DNA of 64,000 nucleotides from Pedobacter psychrotolerans (GTDB lineage: Bacteria > Bacteroidota > Bacteroidia > Sphingobacteriales > Sphingobacteriaceae). A program made the position numbers and the translations under genes. This document shows positions 31,186 through 47,172 of the stretch, in pieces. Within the stretch, counting starts at the first letter, position 1, and every line of letters starts with the position of its first letter. Under the pieces are notes generated by a model. It worked only from the letters and a program-made list of their open reading frames with translations. It had not been told where the DNA came from and ran no database searches. The stretch lies in assembly GCF_004340665.1 (NCBI RefSeq), contig NZ_SLWO01000004.1, positions 248,001 to 312,000 on the forward strand, read 5' to 3'.

Positions 31186-31259
31186 GGGCCTATAGCTCAG
31201 CTGGTTAGAGTAGAAGACTCATAATCTTTTGGTCCCTGGTTCGAGCCCAGGTGGGCCCA
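31186..31259 (+). tRNA. tRNA with CAU anticodon (tRNA-Ile2 or elongator tRNA-Met)
   Basis: A full cloverleaf can be drawn: acceptor G-G-G-C-C-T-A with T-G-G-G-C-C-C (one G-U), D-arm GCTC/GAGT, a 5-bp anticodon stem GAAGA/TCTTT, anticodon loop CTCATAA, T-arm CCTGG/CCAGG, and A as discriminator. CCA is not encoded. CAU could read AUG, or AUA after lysidine modification by TilS. The GACTCATAATC and TTGGTC surroundings look more like tRNA-Ile2, but I cannot decide without TilS-determinant comparison. It is followed by an intrinsic terminator and by a recombinase fragment, so it is the probable attachment site of the element downstream. Confidence 0.95.
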
Positions 31260-31272
31260 CAAAAATTAAATT

Positions 31273-31302
31273 GCCCTTTGAGCATCCTCAAAGGGCTTTT
31301 TT
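31273..31302 (+). terminator. Rho-independent terminator of the tRNA
   Basis: A perfect 10-bp stem (GCCCTTTGAG with CTCAAAGGGC), loop CATC, is followed by seven T residues, 13 bp after the tRNA. Confidence 0.95.
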
Positions 31303-31395
31303 ATGGCTTCAAACGCTGTTTTCCTTAACATTTCCTACCTTTTGAATGCCAATCTATCGTTAGGATCAACATGACTTTTTGCTTAACTTAGTATA

Positions 31396-31449
31396 AAAAA
31401 CTTAAGGAAAACTTAAGGATTTTTCAAAAACTTAAGGAAAACTTAAGAA
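31396..31449 (+). repeat. Direct repeats of AAACTTAAGGA in two phased pairs (candidate integrase arm sites)
   Basis: CTTAAG occurs at 31401, 31412, 31431 and 31442, so spacing is 11, 19 and 11 bp. The 24-bp block 31396-31419 is repeated almost exactly at 31426-31449 with a period of 30 bp. The pairs are one helical turn apart. They lie between the tRNA and the start of a tyrosine recombinase fragment, where arm-type integrase binding sites are expected. Confidence 0.7.
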
Positions 31450-31524: not shown

Positions 31525-31716
31525 ATGGCTACGATTTCAGCAACAATTCTCAAGGCAGACAAACGAGGTAACGGAACATGGAACGTTAAGATTAGAGTAT
31601 GGCATAACAAAAAGCCTGCTTACATCGATACTGCCCATCATTTAGGGATAAAGCAAGTAACAAAAAAAAGCAAGGGAAGTGATACCCTTATTATAAAGGA
31701 TAATTTCATCCTTGAC
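31525..31716 (+). pseudogene. Tyrosine recombinase (integrase) N-terminal fragment
   Basis: From ATG 31525, about 64 residues match the arm-DNA-binding/SAM-like N-terminus of Bacteroidota tyrosine recombinases: M-A-T-I-S-A-T-I-L-K, D-G/G-T-W-N-V-K-I-R-V-W-H-N-K-K-P-A-Y-I, and the late I-I-K-D-N-F-I-L-D. The catalytic domain (R-H-R-Y) is gone: after about residue 64 the frame continues, without a stop, into ImuB sequence. It lies 265 bp after a tRNA, as expected for an element integrated at a tRNA 3' end. It is inactive as an integrase and may still be expressed as a hybrid protein to 32064. Confidence 0.75.
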
Positions 31717-32526
31717 AGTCCCCTGCAAATACCTGTACCATTTAGTGAAAGGCTGGCCTGTATGGAGCCAATCAAAACCAAAACTGGAATTGAGATCGCT
31801 ATCCAAAAGATGCTTGAAAACATGTGCAAGCGCATGCAGTCAGAAGGCAAAGGGCTCCGGACAGGCATATTAACAGGCTACCGAATCGATGGAAAAGTTG
31901 TACAAATTGCTATTGGAACCAGTGGTGCAACGCATAGCGTTAGTCACCTCTTCAAACTTTTTCAACTCAAGATCGATCAGATTCGTCCGGCACTCGGAAT
32001 AGAACTTTTTGTCCTTGATGCGCCAAAAGTTGATGATGTTGAGGTACCGCAGGAAGAAATGTAGTCTGCTAAGCCTGGTCTGGATGATCAAAATGTATTC
32101 AGGCTGCTTGACAGGGTTGCCGGAAAAGTTGGTTTGCAGGTGATCCACCGTTATTTACCAGCGACAAGGTATTGACCTGAACGTGCTGTTTTAAAGGCAG
32201 CTTCAATTATAGAGAAGCCGATGTCAGACTGGCGGGTAAATAAACCCAGACCTACTGAGCTGCTTAAAACGCCTGCTCCAATAGAGGTTATGGCGCTGAT
32301 TCCTGATCATCCACCAAAATTTTTCATCTACAAGGGGATCAGGCACCTGATCTCCAAAGCAGATGGGCCTGAACGGATTAAGCGGGAATGGTGGCTGGAT
32401 CAAGGTGAACATAGAGATTATTACCAGGTGGAAGATGAGGCGGGTGGCCGTTATTGGCTATTCCGCTCGTGGCACTATGGAGGGGAACAAAAGTACCAGT
32501 GGTTTATACATGGATTTTTTGCTTAA
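31717..32526 (+). pseudogene. imuB: ImuB (Y-family polymerase-like) C-terminal remnant with two in-frame stops
   Basis: ImuB is a catalytically dead Y-family polymerase that joins ImuA and DnaE2 in damage-induced mutagenesis. Here about the first 300 residues are missing. What remains starts P-V-P-F-S-E-R-L-A-C-M-E-P-I, then G-I-E-I-A-I-Q and E-G-K-G-L-R-T-G-I-L-T-G-Y-R-I-D-G-K. It continues through RLLDRVAGKVGL to the conserved ending E-W-W-L-D-Q-G-x-H-R-D-Y-Y and W-F-I-H-G-F-F-A at 32524. All of it is in one frame but interrupted by TAG at 32062-32064 and TGA downstream (within the R-Y-stop-P-E-R context near 32172). imuA is absent. The reading frame from 32221 to 32526 is the tail of this pseudogene, not an independent gene. 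Confidence 0.85.
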
Positions 32527-32538
32527 AGGAGATGAGAT

Positions 32539-35500
32539 ATGGTGTATAGTGAATTACAGGTGACTTCAAACTTTAGCTTTCTGCGTGGCGCTTCGCATGC
32601 ACAGGAGCTGGTTGAATAGGCGGAAATCTTTGGATATAAAAAAATTGCGATAACCGATAGGAATACCCTTGCTGGAATTGTCCGTGCACATGCGGCCTGC
32701 CAGGAAAAAAACATCCAGCAAGTTCAGCCTGCAGGCTGAACTTGCTGGATGGGCCAAGTCTACTTGCTTATCCAACCGACATAGAAGCTTACGGCAGGTT
32801 GTCCGCGCTATTAACCATAGGCAATATGCGGGCAGAGAAAGGGGAATACCATATCTCCCGGGCAGATGTCTACGCACATCGCAAAGGAATAATCTTTGCC
32901 GTAGTTATGCCCGGAATGCTTAACCGCCGTTTTGAATATGAGGCCAGCTTTATTACTGCTGTTGCAGACTGTAGTGAGGCTTTAAGGGGGCAACTCTACC
33001 TTGCTGCAACCAGGTCTTACATGGGGAATGATAATAAGCTGATTTTTAGAACCTCGCAGCTACCGGATTTTTATAGAATACCTGTTGTGGCTACAGGCGA
33101 TGTACATTACCACCATCCCGCACGCCGGGACTTACAGGATGTACTCACCTGTGTCCGCGAGAAATGTAAGATCCAGGAAGCTGGCTTCCGCCTGCACCAG
33201 AATGCGGAGCGTTATATGAAAGAGGTGGCCGAAATGAAGCGGCTGTTCAGGAAATATCCAAGCACCATTTACAATACAATGGTGATTTCAGAAGCCTGTA
33301 ATTTCTCTTTGGATGAACTGAAGTACGTTTACCCGGAATAAATCAATAAAAGTGGGAGAACACCACTGGAAGAACTTAAATACCTACCTGGAAAGGCGCA
33401 CATGAATTTTGTGGTGAAATGATTCCTGATAAGGTAATTCATATGATCCAACATGAAATGGATTTCGTAAAGCAAATGGATTATGCCAACTATTTTCTTT
33501 TTGTGGAGGATATTGTACGTGAAGCACGCCATCGTGGGATTCTTTGTCAGGGCCGTGGCTCTGCAGCCAATTCAGCCATTTGTTTTTGTTTGGGCATAAC
33601 CTCGGTTAACCCGATGAAATTTGATTTGTTGTTTGAAAGGTTTATCTCTCCTGCGAGAAATGAACCACCGGATATTGATGTAGATTTCGAACATGAACGC
33701 CGAGAAGAAATTATCCAGTACATCTACCGTAAATACGGAAGAGACCGCGCGGCAATTGTAGCCACAGTCACTCAGCAACATCAAAAAGGTGCCATCCGGG
33801 ATGTAGGCAAAGCCATGGGCCTGTCTGTAGACACCATCAACCGGCTATCGGGTTCTTTATGGGAACATACAGATGAATGGTTTGAACGGGAACGTTTAAC
33901 GGAGCAAGGATTAAATCCTGATGATCCGCATTTAAAAAAGACATTGGAGCTTACCGCACAAATGATGGGTTTCCCCAGGCAGCTTGGGCAGCATACAGGA
34001 GGTTTTGTAGTCACCAATGGCAAACTTACCGATCTCTGCCCCATCCTGAATGCCCGGATGCAAGACCGCACCAATATTGAATGGAACAAAGATGATATAG
34101 ATGCTTTAGGCTTTTTAAAAGTAGATGTACTGGCCATGGGCATGCTTACCTGCATCCGCAAAGCATTTGATCTCTGCAAAGTGCATTACGGACAAAGCCT
34201 AACCCTGGCAAACATTCCCAAGGATAATCCCGATGTATACCAGATGATCAGCGCTGCTGATACTTTAGGGGTGTTCCAGATTGAAAGCCGGGCACAAATG
34301 TCTATGCTGCCGCGGCTCCTGCCACAGTGCTTTTACGATCTGGTCATTGAAGTGGCAATTGTGCGTCCAGTACCGATACTGGGCGATATGGTCCACCCTT
34401 ACCTGCGGAGAAGAAATAAAGAAGAACCTGTGGTTTATCCTTCTGCTGAACTGGAAGAAATTTTAGGCAGAACCGTGGGCGTACCGCTGTTTCAGGAACA
34501 GGCCATGAAAATAGCCATTGTAGCCGCCGGGTTTACGCCAACAGAAGCGGATGGCTTACGCCGGAGCATGGCTACTTTTAAGTTCAAGCGAATGGTTAAC
34601 CAATATGAGCAGAAGCTGATAAAAGGTATGGTAGCCAAAGGCTATACCATTGACTTTGCAAAACGAGTTTTCAAGCAACTGGAAGGTTTTGGGAGCTATG
34701 GATTTCCGGAAAGCCATGCCGCAAGTTTCGCCTTACTGGTCTATGTATCCTGCTGGCTGAAGCATTATTACCCAGATGCTTTTGCCGCAACATTACTCAA
34801 CACTATGTCCATGAGTTTTTATCAACCAGAATATATTGTAATAGATGCGCAAAAACATACCGTATAAATAAGGGAGGTGGATGTTAATTATTCTGCATGG
34901 GGTAACCTGCTCGAAGAAAAATCAGGTCAATATTACGCCATCCGTTTAGGATTCAGGCAAATTAAAGGCATCAAGGAAGAAGAGATAAATACTCTACGGG
35001 CAGGGAAAGGGCAAGGTTACCAGAGTATTGCTGCCATAAGAGATGCAGGCGTATCAATTAGTGCATTAGAGAAATTAGCTGATGCCGATGCCTTTCGCTC
35101 CTTAGGCTTTGACCGCAGAAAAGCTTTATGGCAGGTAACGGCTTTACAAGATATGCCGGAAGAATTATTCAAAGGACAGCCTTCTGAAAGTACACTGGAA
35201 ACCCAGGTAGAACTGCCATTGATGAGTAAAGGCGAGCATGTGGTGCATGATTATGCTACAATCGGTTTATCATTAAAAGCGCATCCTGTAAGCTTTATAA
35301 GGAGTCAGCTGGAAATGTTGCGCATTCTATCCTGTAAAACCATTAATACAGCGGCCAATACCGGGCAGCTGGTTAAAGTAGCGGGATTAGTGCTGGTAAG
35401 GCAACGCCCGGGTACCGCAGGCGGGGTATGTTTCATCACCATTGAAGATGAAACAGGTTTTACTAATCTGGTGGTATTTGAAAAGCTATTTGAAAAATAC

Positions 35501-35767
35501 AGAAAAGAAATTCTTCATTCACGGCTGCTGATGGTAGAAGGACGTTTGCAGCGGGAAAAAGATGTGGTACATGTCATCGTAAGCAAGTGTATAGACCTCA
35601 CTAAAATGCTGGGTAAACTGGTGCAGCGGGAAATGGATGACTTACCGATAATGCATTTATCCTCCACTGATGGAAACGCTACCCCCTACCCATCCCAGCA
35701 TAAACCGACGCAGGTTCGCACAGCAGTAACCCAAGATGCTTTTCATGGTGGAAGAAATTTTAAGTAA
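32539..35767 (+). pseudogene. dnaE2: Error-prone DNA polymerase DnaE2 (ImuC), decayed but nearly full length
   Basis: Start ATG 32539 reads V-Y-S-E-L-Q-V-T-S-N-F-S-F-L-R-G-A-S-H, the DnaE2 PHP start. Breaks in order are: TAG at 32617; frame change with loss of sequence at a 40-bp palindrome (32712-32751); TAA at 33339; a one-base loss near 33381-33391 (Y-L-T-W-K-G expected, Y-L-P-G-K seen); and TAA at 34865. The intact stretches retain PHP-domain G-D-V-H-Y-H-H, polymerase C-Q-G-R-G-S-A-A-N-S-A, P-P-D-I-D-V-D-F-E-H-E-R-R and the C-terminal OB-fold (G-L-V-L-V-R-Q-R-P-G-T-A). At ~1076 codon-equivalents it is the usual DnaE2 length. It lies 12 bp after imuB, the standard cassette order. No functional polymerase can be made. 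Confidence 0.95.
32712..32751. repeat. Perfect 40-bp palindrome inside the dnaE2 pseudogene
   Basis: Twenty bases are followed by their exact reverse complement with no loop (centre 32731/32732). The right half is the authentic dnaE2 codon string for C-R-L-N-L-L-D-G; the left half is its reverse complement and replaces the coding sequence expected there. It marks one of the gene's two frame changes. Confidence 0.9.
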
Positions 35768-35800
35768 ACAGATGTTAATCAATGGTATTCGCCCATACAG

Positions 35801-37012
35801 CTAGAGCATTTCATTTTTCAGATAAACATCTTGAGGCATTTGTCCCACTAACTCAACATACTTTCGGGGATCTGTAGCACCCTCTGTATTGAAGATTAAA
35901 ACACTAGATTTTTCATCAATTCCAAGATCTCTCATTGTAGACTTATTTTCACAGATCTGAATTAGACCAGCAATTCCTGCACAACCACTCTCGCCCGATA
36001 CAATAAATGGATCGTTACCTTTTGGTGATGCCAACAGCCTCATTGTATCTACTGCTTCCTTTTCCGAGATTGTGATGAAACCATAGGCTATTTTTGACAA
36101 TATTCGCCATGCAATCATAGATGGTTCATAGCATTCCAGCATTGCCATCACAGTAGGTTTACTATTTCTAATTTTTATTGAATGTCCCATTTTTGCACTT
36201 TCATAAATGCAGGCTGCAAGTTCAGGCTCAACTATTAATATTTTGGGTATCTTGTTTCCAAACAATAGGAATAAATGCCCAGCTATTGCCGAGGCAAGAC
36301 CTCCTACCCCTGCCTGTATAAATACATGAGAGGGTAATTTGTTTAACTGTGACAAGGCTTCTGTAAGCATGATTGTGTATCCCTGCATAATGAGTCCAGG
36401 AATCCGTTCATATCCTGGCCACGAAGTATCAGAAACCATAATCCAACCTTCATCTTTAACCATACGAGATGCTTCAGCAACAGAATCATCATAGGTACCG
36501 TTTACTTCTTTAATATTTGCTCCATAAGCGGCAATTGCTTCTCTTCTATTGTAGCTAACTCCTTTATGCACGAATATAACAGATCTCGCACCTACTATTT
36601 GAGCGCCCGCCGCAACCGAGCGTCCATGATTTCCATCTGTTGCACAGGTAAATGTGATTTTCGATGCAATTTCCTTCACCCACGGACTCTCAATTTCATC
36701 AAACATTATCTTTCTACCCAGTTTGGCTTGTACCTCTTCTACTATAATACAAAATACAGCATATGCCCCACCAAGTGCTTTAAAACTATGTAAACCTAAG
36801 CGGTGGTCTTCATCCTTTACATAAATATCTGAAATACCACAATGTTTTGCTAAAGTAGCTAAAGAATGTAATGGTGTTATTTTATATTCCTTTCTCGAAG
36901 CCCAAAAATCCTGAGCTTTTTTCACTACCTCAGGAGCAAGTAATTTGGCATCGGCTAAATCCAAAGAAAGGCCTTTTTGTGTTGTATTATTTTTTAATAA
37001 CATAAAGTACAT
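35801..37012 (-). CDS. dpaL: Diaminopropionate ammonia-lyase (DpaL/YgeX-like)
   Basis: A 403-residue PLP enzyme of fold type II that converts 2,3-diaminopropionate (Dap) to pyruvate and two ammonia. The PLP Lys is in G-L-H-S-F-K-A-L-G-G-A-Y (~residue 77). Other family motifs are A-T-D-G-N-H-G-R-S-V-A, I-Q-A-G-V-G-G-L-A-S, V-E-P-E-L-A-A-C and S-G-E-S-G-C-A-G (phosphate-binding region). The length matches E. coli YgeX. It lies 164 bp downstream of the PPTase, as the last gene of the NRPS cluster on the same strand. With an SbnA-type Dap synthase in the same cluster it could limit free Dap or prevent its misincorporation; this role is inferred. Confidence 0.9.
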   Translation of the reverse strand: MYFMLLKNNTTQKGLSLDLADAKLLAPEVVKKAQDFWASRKEYKITPLHSLATLAKHCGISDIYVKDEDHRLGLHSFKALGGAYAVFCIIVEEVQAKLGRKIMFDEIESPWVKEIASKITFTCATDGNHGRSVAAGAQIVGARSVIFVHKGVSYNRREAIAAYGANIKEVNGTYDDSVAEASRMVKDEGWIMVSDTSWPGYERIPGLIMQGYTIMLTEALSQLNKLPSHVFIQAGVGGLASAIAGHLFLLFGNKIPKILIVEPELAACIYESAKMGHSIKIRNSKPTVMAMLECYEPSMIAWRILSKIAYGFITISEKEAVDTMRLLASPKGNDPFIVSGESGCAGIAGLIQICENKSTMRDLGIDEKSSVLIFNTEGATDPRKYVELVGQMPQDVYLKNEML

Positions 37013-43841: not shown

Positions 43842-45548
43842 TTATAACATGATGAGGTAGTCATCAATCACCAATGCATCTATGCCGGTTGTACAGAACA
43901 TGGCTACCGCATCTTCTACTGAATGGATGATGGGTTTACCCATGATATTGAAACTGGTATTGAGCAAAATTGGGATACCCGTTAGTTCTTTAAAGGCCGA
44001 GATGAGATTATAATACCTTTCGTTGTATTCTTTTTTAACCGTTTGCAACCTGCCGGTACCATCGGTATGAACCACACCAGGTACTTTATTAAAACTTTCT
44101 TTTTTAAAAACTAGTGCTTTTTCCATATAGGGAGATTCGCTATAATTTTCAAAATATTCGTGGCCGTACTCGTGAAGAATTGAAGGCGCAAAAGGCCTGA
44201 ATTCTTCCCTGAATTTAACCTTGCTGTTGATGATATCTTTTATGTTCTCATTCCGGGGATCTGCCAGGATGGATCTGTTACCCAGAGAGCGTGGACCATA
44301 CTCTGCTTTTCCCTGCACCCAGCCTATAATTTTTCCTTCTGCCAACAGCTTTGCAGTATCCTGGTATATATTTTCTGATTTCCTGGCATAATTGAACTTA
44401 TTAAAGCGCATGATCCTTTCCACAGCATCTACAGACATTCCAGAACCCAGGTACGGCGATTTTATATTTACGATTTCCTTTTGTACAGGATGATCCTGGT
44501 AATAGGCCAGTAAAGCAGCACCTACGGCATTTCCATCATCTGCAGGGGCACAGGGTACATGCATATTTTTAAAGTTTGTTGTTTGCTGCACTTTACCATT
44601 ATAGGCAGAGTTTAAAGCGCACCCGCCTGTAAACACCAGATTTTCGGAAATCCCTTTTTTATACAGGTTTTGTAAGAGGGCAGAAAGGATATCAGAAAAG
44701 AATACCTGCGCGGTAAAGGCAAGATCTGCATATTTTAAGGACCCATTACCAGGCCAGTTTTTAACCACTTCTTTTAATGCACGCGTAGCATCTGAAGCCC
44801 TTCTTTTAGGAATCATTACAGTGCCTTTTACTTCCAGAAACTCGCATAAAAGCGCATATACCTCTTCATTGTATTTGCCATAAGGAGCAAGGCCCATCAC
44901 TTTCCACTCTTCTCCGTCTAAATGGTTAAAACCGCAGGCGTTGCATACAAAGCCATACAACATCCCTAAACTACCTGCAGATGAGGGAATTCCCGGAACG
45001 GGGGTAAGTGTTCCGTTTATGTAATGATAAAATGCTGTTGATCCTTTTTCTCCAAAACCATCTGCCACCACACAAACCGCTTCTTTAAATGGACTGCTAT
45101 AACAGGCGAAGGCTGCATGTGTAAGGTGATGGTTAAAAGATTTTTCGACAATGCCGGAGTTTCCGAATTGCTGCTGAAAATTAATGGCAATATTTTTTCC
45201 GGCTAGCCTGCCATTGGCAATCATTCCCTGGCGCATGGTTTTAATGGTACGTTCGTTAGTTTCAGTAACCCGCCTGTTCATCAGCCATTGCATTAACGGA
45301 TTGCTGATCCGCTGAATATAACTTTCGCCCCAGGAAGTTGCAATCACCAGATCGGCATCGGGCTCACAATATTCTCTTACCAGCTGCCTTGACCGGATGA
45401 GGTCGTCGGGAACGCAATTCCATGCACGTTTATTTTGCAAGTTCCGCTCCGTAGCCTCTGCAAAAACAAGTTCACCTTTTGAATTTATGATAGCGATTGC
45501 CGGGTCGTGACAAGTAGAGGCTATTCCTACATAATTTTTTTTCTTCAT
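43842..45548 (-). CDS. Carbamoyltransferase, NodU/CmcH/TobZ family
   Basis: A 568-residue protein of the O-carbamoyltransferase family that moves the carbamoyl group of carbamoyl phosphate through a carbamoyladenylate. Motifs are: N-terminal Y-V-G-I-A-S-T-C-H-D-P-A; metal/substrate H-H-L-T-H-A-A (~140); D-G-F-G-E-K-G; and F-T-G-G-C-A-L-N-S. Also present are G-K-A-E-Y-G-P-R-S-L-G-N-R-S-I-L-A-D-P-R and R-E-E-F-R-P-F-A-P-S. In antibiotic clusters such enzymes carbamoylate hydroxyl groups (cephamycin, tobramycin). Here the N-methylserine predicted from module 2 is the obvious acceptor, but a ureido on Dap is possible. It lies 23 bp after the APS kinase gene in the same operon. Confidence 0.93.
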   Translation of the reverse strand: MKKKNYVGIASTCHDPAIAIINSKGELVFAEATERNLQNKRAWNCVPDDLIRSRQLVREYCEPDADLVIATSWGESYIQRISNPLMQWLMNRRVTETNERTIKTMRQGMIANGRLAGKNIAINFQQQFGNSGIVEKSFNHHLTHAAFACYSSPFKEAVCVVADGFGEKGSTAFYHYINGTLTPVPGIPSSAGSLGMLYGFVCNACGFNHLDGEEWKVMGLAPYGKYNEEVYALLCEFLEVKGTVMIPKRRASDATRALKEVVKNWPGNGSLKYADLAFTAQVFFSDILSALLQNLYKKGISENLVFTGGCALNSAYNGKVQQTTNFKNMHVPCAPADDGNAVGAALLAYYQDHPVQKEIVNIKSPYLGSGMSVDAVERIMRFNKFNYARKSENIYQDTAKLLAEGKIIGWVQGKAEYGPRSLGNRSILADPRNENIKDIINSKVKFREEFRPFAPSILHEYGHEYFENYSESPYMEKALVFKKESFNKVPGVVHTDGTGRLQTVKKEYNERYYNLISAFKELTGIPILLNTSFNIMGKPIIHSVEDAVAMFCTTGIDALVIDDYLIML

Positions 45549-45571: not shown

Positions 45572-46150
45572 TTAGGCCTCGTTTATTGATTTATCCTGTA
45601 AAGTATCCATAAGAGATAAAGTTGGCAGGTAACCGGCTTCTTCCAGATAGCTGATTATTTTATTAACAGAAATTTCTACTGTTTCTGTATCTGTAAAACA
45701 GATTATTTCAGGATGCCGGGGTTCTTCATAAGGATCACTTATTCCCGTAAAACCTGTTAATGCTCCACTACGAACTTTTTTGTACAATCCCTTTACATCC
45801 CTTCGTTCGCACTCTTCAATGGGGCATTTAATGTATACTTCTATAAAGTTTTTAATTTTAGCCCTTACCTGTTGGCGGGCTTCCTGATAAGGCGATATGG
45901 CCGAGACAATTACGCCCACACCATTTCTGGAGAGTAAGGCTGCAACAAAACCAATACGAAGCACATTAATATCCCTGTCTTCACGCGAGAAAGTTAATCC
46001 CTTTGAAAGGTTTTCTCTGATCACATCTCCATCGAGTGTTTCACAAGGTACCTGCCTCTTGTTTAGCGCTAAACATAACTTTTCGGCTATGGTTGTTTTA
46101 CCCGCTCCGCTCAAACCGGTAAGCCAGATTGTAAATCCGTTAATTTTCAT
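45572..46150 (-). CDS. cysC: Adenylylsulfate kinase (APS kinase)
   Basis: A 192-residue P-loop kinase converting APS to PAPS, the donor for sulfo-transfer. Motifs are complete: G-L-S-G-A-G-K-T-T (~12-20), L-D-G-D-V-I-R-E-N-L (~39), F-S-R-E-D-R-D-I-N (~54), V-S-A-I-S-P-Y-Q-E-A-R and F-T-G-I-S-D-P-Y-E-E-P. It carries no sulfurylase domain, so APS must come from ATP sulfurylase elsewhere. Within the NRPS operon it implies that the product is sulfated or N-sulfonated, yet no sulfotransferase gene is recognisable in the window. The C-terminus has a short extension after the P-T-L. Confidence 0.95.
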   Translation of the reverse strand: MKINGFTIWLTGLSGAGKTTIAEKLCLALNKRQVPCETLDGDVIRENLSKGLTFSREDRDINVLRIGFVAALLSRNGVGVIVSAISPYQEARQQVRAKIKNFIEVYIKCPIEECERRDVKGLYKKVRSGALTGFTGISDPYEEPRHPEIICFTDTETVEISVNKIISYLEEAGYLPTLSLMDTLQDKSINEA

Positions 46151-46167: not shown

Positions 46168-47172
46168 TTAATTATTTATGGTAAAGTCCTGATATTGTGC
46201 CGCAGCAACCTTTGCTCCCCACTGTTGATCATAAATGGTATCTAGGTAAGCATCTCCACTATCCGGACAAATAAATAATACCTGTGGCTTGGTATCAAAA
46301 GCAGGATGATTTTGGAAATATCTTTTTATACAGCTGTAGGATGCACCGGATGAAGCTCCGCAAAACAGCATGTGCTGATCAACCAGGTTATGGCAGCCTT
46401 CAATAATGTCGACCTGTGATATATGGATAATTTCATCAATTATAGCTTCATTAATGAGTGGTGGAACAATGCTTGAACCAATACCGGAAATAAAGCGCTT
46501 TTGTGGAGGATGCGAAAATATTACTGATCCTTCTACATCAATGGCTATAATTTTAATATCAGGAAATTCTATTTTGAGTTTTTTTGACAGGCCGGCTATT
46601 GTTCCGCACGAACTTACACCAATAAAAACATAATCCAATTTTACAAAGCTATCGGCTATCTCTTTGGCCATATAATGATAATAGGTTTCTGCATTTACAG
46701 GATTTCCATATTGATTTGGCCAGAATGTGTGCTCGTTTGACTGGCGTATTGCTGATACCCGTGCAAGGCGCGTAAGCAGGTAGCCGCCGGTTTCATCAAT
46801 TTCTGTTACCTTGATTACTTCTGCACACAAGTAGCGTAAAAGTTTCTCATAACCCGGATTAATGTTGGGATCTATTACCGGGATAAACCTGATGCCAATA
46901 AGTTTACAAAGCATGGCCAGTGCAATGGCAAAATTACCCGAACTGGATTCTACTACTATGCTATTTTCATCTATCTGACCATCGCCGATAGCTTTATATA
47001 GGATATTAAACGCAGGCCTGCTTTTAATGCTACCTGCAAAATTAACGTATTCAAGTTTGGCAAAAATATTGGCATTCATATGTGGCACAGCAAGTTTTAT
47101 AACAGGCGTATTACCAATCAGAGGCTGGATTAAACTTAGTTTTTCCAGCATTTCTTTTGTTTGAAGGGACAT
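46168..47172 (-). CDS. sbnA: 2,3-diaminopropionate biosynthesis protein, SbnA-like (ACEGA synthase)
   Basis: A 334-residue PLP fold-type II enzyme. SbnA condenses O-phosphoserine and glutamate to N-(1-amino-1-carboxy-2-ethyl)glutamate, the precursor of Dap. It resembles SbnA more than cysteine synthase: F-A-K-L-E-Y-V-N-F-A-G-S-I-K-S-R-P (PLP Lys ~46), E-S-S-S-G-N-F-A-I-A-L-A-M, D-P-N-I-N-P-G, G-G-Y-L-L-T-R-L-A-R-V, F-W-P-N-Q-Y-G-N-P, S-S-C-G-T-I-A-G-L-S, and C-P-D-S-G-D-A-Y-L-D-T. No SbnB partner is in the window. Position directly after the terminal NRPS module (24 bp) supports supply of Dap to that module's A domain. Confidence 0.9.
   Translation of the reverse strand: MSLQTKEMLEKLSLIQPLIGNTPVIKLAVPHMNANIFAKLEYVNFAGSIKSRPAFNILYKAIGDGQIDENSIVVESSSGNFAIALAMLCKLIGIRFIPVIDPNINPGYEKLLRYLCAEVIKVTEIDETGGYLLTRLARVSAIRQSNEHTFWPNQYGNPVNAETYYHYMAKEIADSFVKLDYVFIGVSSCGTIAGLSKKLKIEFPDIKIIAIDVEGSVIFSHPPQKRFISGIGSSIVPPLINEAIIDEIIHISQVDIIEGCHNLVDQHMLFCGASSGASYSCIKRYFQNHPAFDTKPQVLFICPDSGDAYLDTIYDQQWGAKVAAAQYQDFTINN

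What the first reader, a model, noticed from the sequence alone, without database searches (positions are those of the whole stretch)
31525..32064. In-frame fusion of a tyrosine-recombinase N-terminus to ImuB
A deletion joined ~64 residues of integrase arm-binding domain to the C-terminal finger region of ImuB without breaking the frame. It has created a 179-residue chimeric ORF driven by the former integrase start, right after the tRNA. It records element excision or internal deletion and may be a new protein that binds the arm repeats.
Basis: partly seen in the sequence, partly recalled or inferred. Interest (0 to 1): 0.6.

Follow-up and report, generated by a model that had tools for sequence, protein, structure and literature searches.

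The report
Dead integrase-ImuB fusion in decayed island
A chance deletion in a large, now stranded genomic island of a soil bacterium joined the start of its integration enzyme to part of a mutation-promoting DNA-repair protein, and later mutations broke the product, so it is best read as a molecular fossil and not as a new working protein.

Summary
The fusion is real. ORF 31525-32064 (179 aa) is residues 1-64 of a tyrosine recombinase joined in frame, at about 31718/31719, to the little-finger domain of ImuB (from about residue 234 of 502). No other hit listed from 145 genus genomes or 101 family genomes spans the junction. Named relatives put the genus as Pedobacter.

It is a relic. Three relatives carry intact 421-426 aa integrases beside the same tRNA-Met. 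Here the rest of the integrase, imuA and imuB 1-233 are gone from the 144 kb examined; whole-genome searches found no second copy of the integrase or ImuA. The 179-aa end is an acquired stop: the tryptophan there is kept in 25 of 25 readable relatives and completes a putative clamp-binding motif. A second stop follows in imuB, and dnaE2 has three stops and two frameshifts. The arm-binding domain stops 5 residues into its closing helix.

The tRNA 3' half recurs (50/52 bp) 101.3 kb downstream, with matching arm-type repeats on the element side of both ends. The element was never excised: it is a ~101-kb island with a non-ribosomal peptide cluster, stranded by loss of its integrase. A new binding protein is not excluded but unlikely.

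The parts
31186..31260 (+). tRNA-Met (anticodon CAT), the integration site
   Evidence: ARAGORN; same tRNA beside the HD-domain gene in relatives
31212..31263 (+). att core (attL): tRNA 3' half; second copy, 50 of 52 identical, at G000:C4:380562-380613, i.e. position 132562-132613 counted from the window start (outside the window)
31265..31304 (+). terminator-like hairpin after the tRNA (18-nt arms)
   Evidence: inverted repeat I6
31400..31447 (+). two paired arm-type repeats ACTTAAG-N4-ACTTAAG (31400, 31430); a third lies on the element side of the far att copy at 132487
   Evidence: 3 in 144 kb, mean 0.02 in 50 shuffles
31525..31718 (+). stump of the tyrosine recombinase gene (residues 1-64 plus two bases of codon 65)
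31719..32061 (+). imuB fragment, about residues 234-348 of 502, little-finger domain
32062..32064 (+). acquired stop TAG; the intact relatives read Trp here, last residue of a Q-x-x-[MLI]-W motif (25 of 25 readable relatives)
32065..32526 (+). rest of imuB in the same frame, with a second Trp-to-stop change at 32173-32175
32539..35767 (+). dnaE2 pseudogene: nonsense at 32617, 33339 and 34865, 1-bp deletions at about 32719 and 33385
32712..32751 (.). perfect 20+20 bp palindrome inside dnaE2; five relatives are only 8-10 of 20 complementary there; coincides with the first frameshift

Best explanation
The ORF is a relic gene fusion inside a ~101-kb genomic island integrated at tRNA-Met in a Pedobacter. 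An illegitimate rearrangement removed the catalytic and core-binding parts of the island's own tyrosine recombinase, together with imuA and the N-terminal half of imuB, and joined what was left in frame. This stranded the island: attL, attR and arm sites remain, but the genome search found no second integrase of this family. The imuB-dnaE2 remnant also collected nonsense and frameshift mutations, one of which set the present 179-aa end. Shown: both parentages, the breakpoint, the lesions, the att pair, the arm repeats, and intact counterparts in relatives. Inferred: the order of events, loss of mobility, and absence of function.
For: Homology of both halves. Breakpoint inside codon 65. No other listed hit spans the junction (145 genus genomes; 101 family genomes). 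tblastn of full Int, ImuA, ImuB and DnaE2 against 144 kb finds only Int 1-64, the ImuB C-terminal part and DnaE2 pieces, apart from chance-level matches (E 0.3-0.9); ImuA is absent. Whole own genome: no ImuA hit, no second integrase of this family, one P0001 match. Lesions. att copy 101.3 kb away with a matching arm site. Counterpart islands: P. suwonensis att copies 190 kb apart, G107 177 kb apart, both with intact Int. Other integrases at this site are truncated too: 34 aa in Pedobacter sp. Leaf216, 101 aa at the second att copy of P. suwonensis. GC: 0.45 for 31525-35800 against 0.353 for the left 31 kb, and 0.48-0.52 in four relatives' cassettes.
Against: The 540-bp ORF itself carries no lesion. 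Amino-acid identity of the ImuB part (up to 88%) is as high as between intact relatives, and synonymous sites are near saturation in nearly all pairs, so relaxed selection on the fragment cannot be shown; decay could be recent. The exact parents are not held, so the deletion cannot be sized. In P. suwonensis the cassette faces the other way, so more than one event may be needed. No reads were available to check the junction. Searches have no positive control in this genome.
Confidence: 0.9

Rival explanations
1. The chimera is a working new protein: the arm-binding part docks on the repeats at 31400-31447 just upstream of its own start and the little finger adds DNA binding, giving a repressor or att-site occupier.
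For: Open frame from the old integrase start, arm repeats intact on both ends, little-finger fold predicted with block pLDDT of about 79-93 for residues 71-170.
Against: Cut 5 residues into the closing helix of the arm domain (residues 60-79), losing invariant Tyr73-Arg74. The end is an acquired stop, the downstream partner gene is broken, and the fusion was seen in one genome only. N-terminal 68 residues modelled at low confidence, though without homologues for that half in the alignment.
Confidence: 0.03
2. Assembly error: two distant loci were joined by the assembler.
For: Draft genome of 23 contigs; fusion seen in one genome.
Against: Lies inside a 678-kb contig. The own genome has no second ImuB, no ImuA, no DnaE2 over the cut-off elsewhere and no other integrase of this family from which a false join could arise. 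The two parent families share no long repeat at the junction, and the join sits inside a coherent att-bounded island.
Confidence: 0.04
3. The first-reader view that the join records excision of the element, leaving a scar.
For: Junction is close to the tRNA.
Against: Site-specific excision would leave one att copy and no cargo; here both copies and ~101 kb of cargo remain, and the junction is not at an att sequence.
Confidence: 0.02

Closest known systems
tRNA-Met island with intact integrase and imuA-imuB-dnaE2 in Pedobacter suwonensis DSM 18130 (G233:C26 = NZ_FOJM01000002.1)
   Same: Same tRNA, an integrase whose N-terminus is 69% identical to the stump, tRNA 3' duplicate at the far end with a similar arm site, imuA-imuB-dnaE2 as cargo
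   Different: Integrase and cassette intact; island ~190 kb; cassette about 20 kb from int and in the opposite orientation
ICEPni2 of Pseudomonas nitroreducens HBP-1 (PMC7466150, passages read)
   Same: An imuA-imuB-imuC cassette near one end of an integrated mobile element
   Different: Different phylum; no decay or fusion reported in the passages seen
Plasmid and vestigial imuBC cassettes of rhizobia (PMC4151985, passages read)
   Same: Mutagenesis cassette on a mobile element and decayed in some hosts; the authors suggest counter-selection of hypermutagenesis
   Different: Plasmid-borne; no join to an integrase in the passages seen

Membership tests
tRNA-integrated genomic island of the tyrosine-recombinase kind | Direct repeat of the tRNA 3' end at both boundaries | tested here: met
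   50 of 52 bp, 31212-31263 and 132562-132613
tRNA-integrated genomic island of the tyrosine-recombinase kind | Integrase gene beside the tRNA, reading away from it | tested here: met
   Stump starts 264 bp after the tRNA; intact in G107, G170, G233
tRNA-integrated genomic island of the tyrosine-recombinase kind | Arm-type repeats on the element side of both ends | tested here: met
   31400, 31430 and 132487
tRNA-integrated genomic island of the tyrosine-recombinase kind | Uninterrupted site in relatives | tested here: inconclusive
   G120: 79 bp at 92% runs from the tRNA into the sequence right of the far att copy, and synteny resumes within about 300 bp; but in the window genome 6.8 kb lies between att and that synteny
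Functional tyrosine recombinase | Core-binding and catalytic domains | tested here: not met
   Only residues 1-64 of about 421 remain; rest absent from the 144 kb and no second copy of this family in the genome
Arm-binding domain | Complete sheet plus closing helix | tested here: not met
   Strands up to residue 57 and helix 60-79 in the intact-integrase model; stump ends at 64. Pfam Arm-DNA-bind_5 not hit by the stump, hit only weakly by one parent
ImuB | IMS palm/fingers region | tested here: not met
   IMS covers residues 8-155 of intact ImuB; fragment starts at about 234
ImuB | Little-finger domain | tested here: met
   Foldseek hits to Y-family polymerases, E about 1e-5 to 1e-6
ImuB | Clamp-binding motif and C-terminal region | tested here: not met
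   ORF ends one residue before the Trp of Q-x-x-[MLI]-W; compared with mycobacterial QLPLWG (PMC10421592, passage). That the Pedobacter motif binds the clamp is my inference

The most novel reading that the evidence does not exclude
The chimera is translated from the old integrase signals and works as a small DNA-binding protein on the island's arm repeats (autorepressor or att-site blocker), helping to keep the 101-kb peptide-synthesis island from being lost.
Probability: 0.03. Interest if true: 0.6.

Novelty: new member of a known kind. Interest (0 to 1): 0.22.

Why it matters
It shows how a mobile island becomes a fixed part of a chromosome: its own integrase is cut away while cargo (here a large peptide-synthesis cluster) stays between intact att sites. 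It also gives a Bacteroidota example of an error-prone polymerase cassette that rides on an integrative island in one species (P. suwonensis) and decays in another, parallel to what was described for plasmid cassettes in rhizobia. As a new protein it probably does not matter.

Tried and rejected
Pfam on the two halves gave nothing at E<=1, so family libraries could not name them; homologues did. A chimeric protein alignment (A1) placed the integrase rows wrongly against the ImuB part and was dropped; the chimera was modelled with ImuB rows only (A3), so its low N-terminal confidence is not evidence on its own. dN/dS was useless because synonymous sites are near saturation; that script also stopped on a division by zero after most pairs. 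In one search two of four dnaE2 references (G194, G182) were cut to a few bases by my parsing, so the lesion calls rest on G094 and G101. In one search two of seven (G194, G103) failed to parse, so the palindrome comparison is on five. Microhomology at the junction: GACAG is shared with the integrases, but the ImuB relatives do not have it, so no microhomology is claimed. Integrase relatives G188 and G196 were not counted among the site-linked integrases because no tRNA-Met was found in the stretch fetched. P. terrae (G104) has the cassette between two tRNA-Met copies 92.6 kb apart with an integrase beside one; kept as suggestive only. Papers: no paper found on this fusion in searches (imuB, integrase, Bacteroidetes; imuA, imuB, dnaE2, genomic island; 15 of 67 listed; Pedobacter, imuB; imuB, tyrosine recombinase); listings read, plus passages of PMC6511836, PMC7466150, PMC4151985, PMC8565304 and PMC10421592.

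Full report
Observation. The ORF at 31525-32064 is present, 179 aa. With the whole ORF as query, 111 of 145 genus genomes and 56 of 101 family genomes match. Listed matches cover either about residues 1-64 (recombinase ORFs, many of them 420-450 aa) or about residues 65-179 (ImuB ORFs of about 500 aa). Only the window's own genome gives a match over 1-179 among the rows listed, which are ordered by score. The best full-length recombinases are in G233, G107 and G170 (69, 64 and 62% over the stump). The window therefore comes from a Pedobacter.

Junction. DNA alignments of the window with the three integrases end at 31718, inside codon 65. ImuB codons are equivalent from the base after. The parents contribute AG (integrase Arg codon) and T (ImuB codon), giving serine at position 65. 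The integrase gene is missing from residue 65 on, imuA is missing, and imuB is missing to about residue 233 (tblastn over 144 kb). The own genome shows no ImuA, one match to the integrase profile, the stump itself, and no second P0001 match. Searches have no positive control in this genome; ImuA counterparts are found in relative loci by a sister ImuA query.

What the ORF would encode. In a model of the intact P. suwonensis integrase (mean pLDDT 82) the arm-binding part is strands up to residue 57 closed by helix 60-79. The stump stops at 64 and loses Tyr73 and Arg74, invariant in all 12 aligned integrases. The second part folds as a Y-family little finger (Foldseek top hits are Y-family polymerases, and 1unn_C is the Pol IV little finger with the clamp).

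Why it ends at 179. In intact ImuB the next codon is Trp. It closes a Q-x-x-[MLI]-W motif in 25 of 25 relatives that could be read (of 26 examined; the other is cut off by its contig end). Mycobacterial ImuB has its clamp motif QLPLWG at 352-357, and mutating it or deleting the C-terminal 168 residues behaves like loss of imuB (passages of PMC10421592). The motif equivalence is my inference. The frame continues to 32526 with a second Trp-to-stop change at 32173. dnaE2 has nonsense changes at 32617, 33339 and 34865 and two 1-bp deletions (two intact references). The first deletion coincides with a perfect 20+20 bp palindrome whose left arm is unlike the five relatives compared (8-10 of 20 complementary), which suggests a template-switch mutation.

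The island. ARAGORN finds one tRNA in the 144 kb. A 50/52 copy of its 3' half lies at 132562-132613 in window-based coordinates, followed by another hairpin (seen in the sequence). Paired ACTTAAG repeats lie on the element side at both ends: three paired sites in 144 kb against 0.02 expected in 50 mononucleotide shuffles. P. suwonensis carries a similar arm site beside its far att copy. Comparable islands at the same tRNA span 190 kb in P. suwonensis and 177 kb in G107. Relative G120 resembles an empty site, with the caveat that 6.8 kb lies between the window genome's far att copy and the point where synteny resumes. Excision is therefore not the event recorded here. An internal rearrangement is.

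Comparison with intact islands. P. suwonensis has imuA-imuB-dnaE2 at C26:421.4-426.9 kb, inside its tRNA-Met island and about 20 kb from int. It faces the opposite way to int, so the window's junction is not a simple deletion of that layout. G107's island shows no imuB: its one listed ImuB match lies elsewhere. Integrase truncation at this tRNA is recurrent. Of seven integrase genes examined next to a tRNA-Met or att copy, four are full length (G107, G170, G233, G104) and three are stumps (window 64, Leaf216 34, P. suwonensis second copy 101 residues).

Literature. imuABC on mobile elements and its decay are known: an ICE of Pseudomonas nitroreducens carries it (PMC7466150, passage), and vestigial imuBC in rhizobia was attributed to possible counter-selection of hypermutagenesis (PMC4151985, passage). 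In Bacteroidetes the cassette shows evidence of SOS regulation in several species (PMC8565304, passage). Searches listed nothing on a fusion of this kind.

Verdict. The product is most probably a pseudogene. Limits: no reads, no expression data, saturated synonymous sites, and parents not held.

Noticed in passing
window 35801-63686, continuing to about 88 kb from the window start (L076, L077): Large non-ribosomal peptide synthetase cluster inside the island with diaminopropionate genes (SbnA-family 46168-47172, SbnB-like in L076), diaminopropionate ammonia-lyase (35801-37012), NodU-like carbamoyltransferase (43842-45548) and adenylyl-sulfate kinase (45572-46150) (the NRPS reading of the large ORFs is from the sequence, not a search).
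   Followed up: partly
window 32712-32751: Perfect 20+20 bp palindrome without spacer in dnaE2, absent in five relatives, with a 1-bp deletion: looks like a template-switch mutation.
   Followed up: partly
L077:4185-4685 (about 88.2-88.7 kb from window start): UpxY-family antiterminator over its NCBIfam cut-off next to the peptide cluster; may control the long operon.
   Followed up: no
G233:C26:257130-257587 (L097, L131, L137): Second att copy in P. suwonensis with another truncated integrase (101 residues) right beside it: islands seem to stack at this tRNA.
   Followed up: partly
L104 (G155:C1:2660000-2675000): Independent decay of an imuA-imuB-dnaE2 cassette in another Pedobacter: imuB and dnaE2 are each split into two ORFs.
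   Followed up: no
132614-139451 from window start (L079): 6.8 kb between the far att copy and the point where synteny with G120 resumes; a stretch of it (137.1-138.5 kb) is 77% identical to DNA lying between the tRNA and a tRNA fragment in G129: perhaps a remnant of another island.
   Followed up: no
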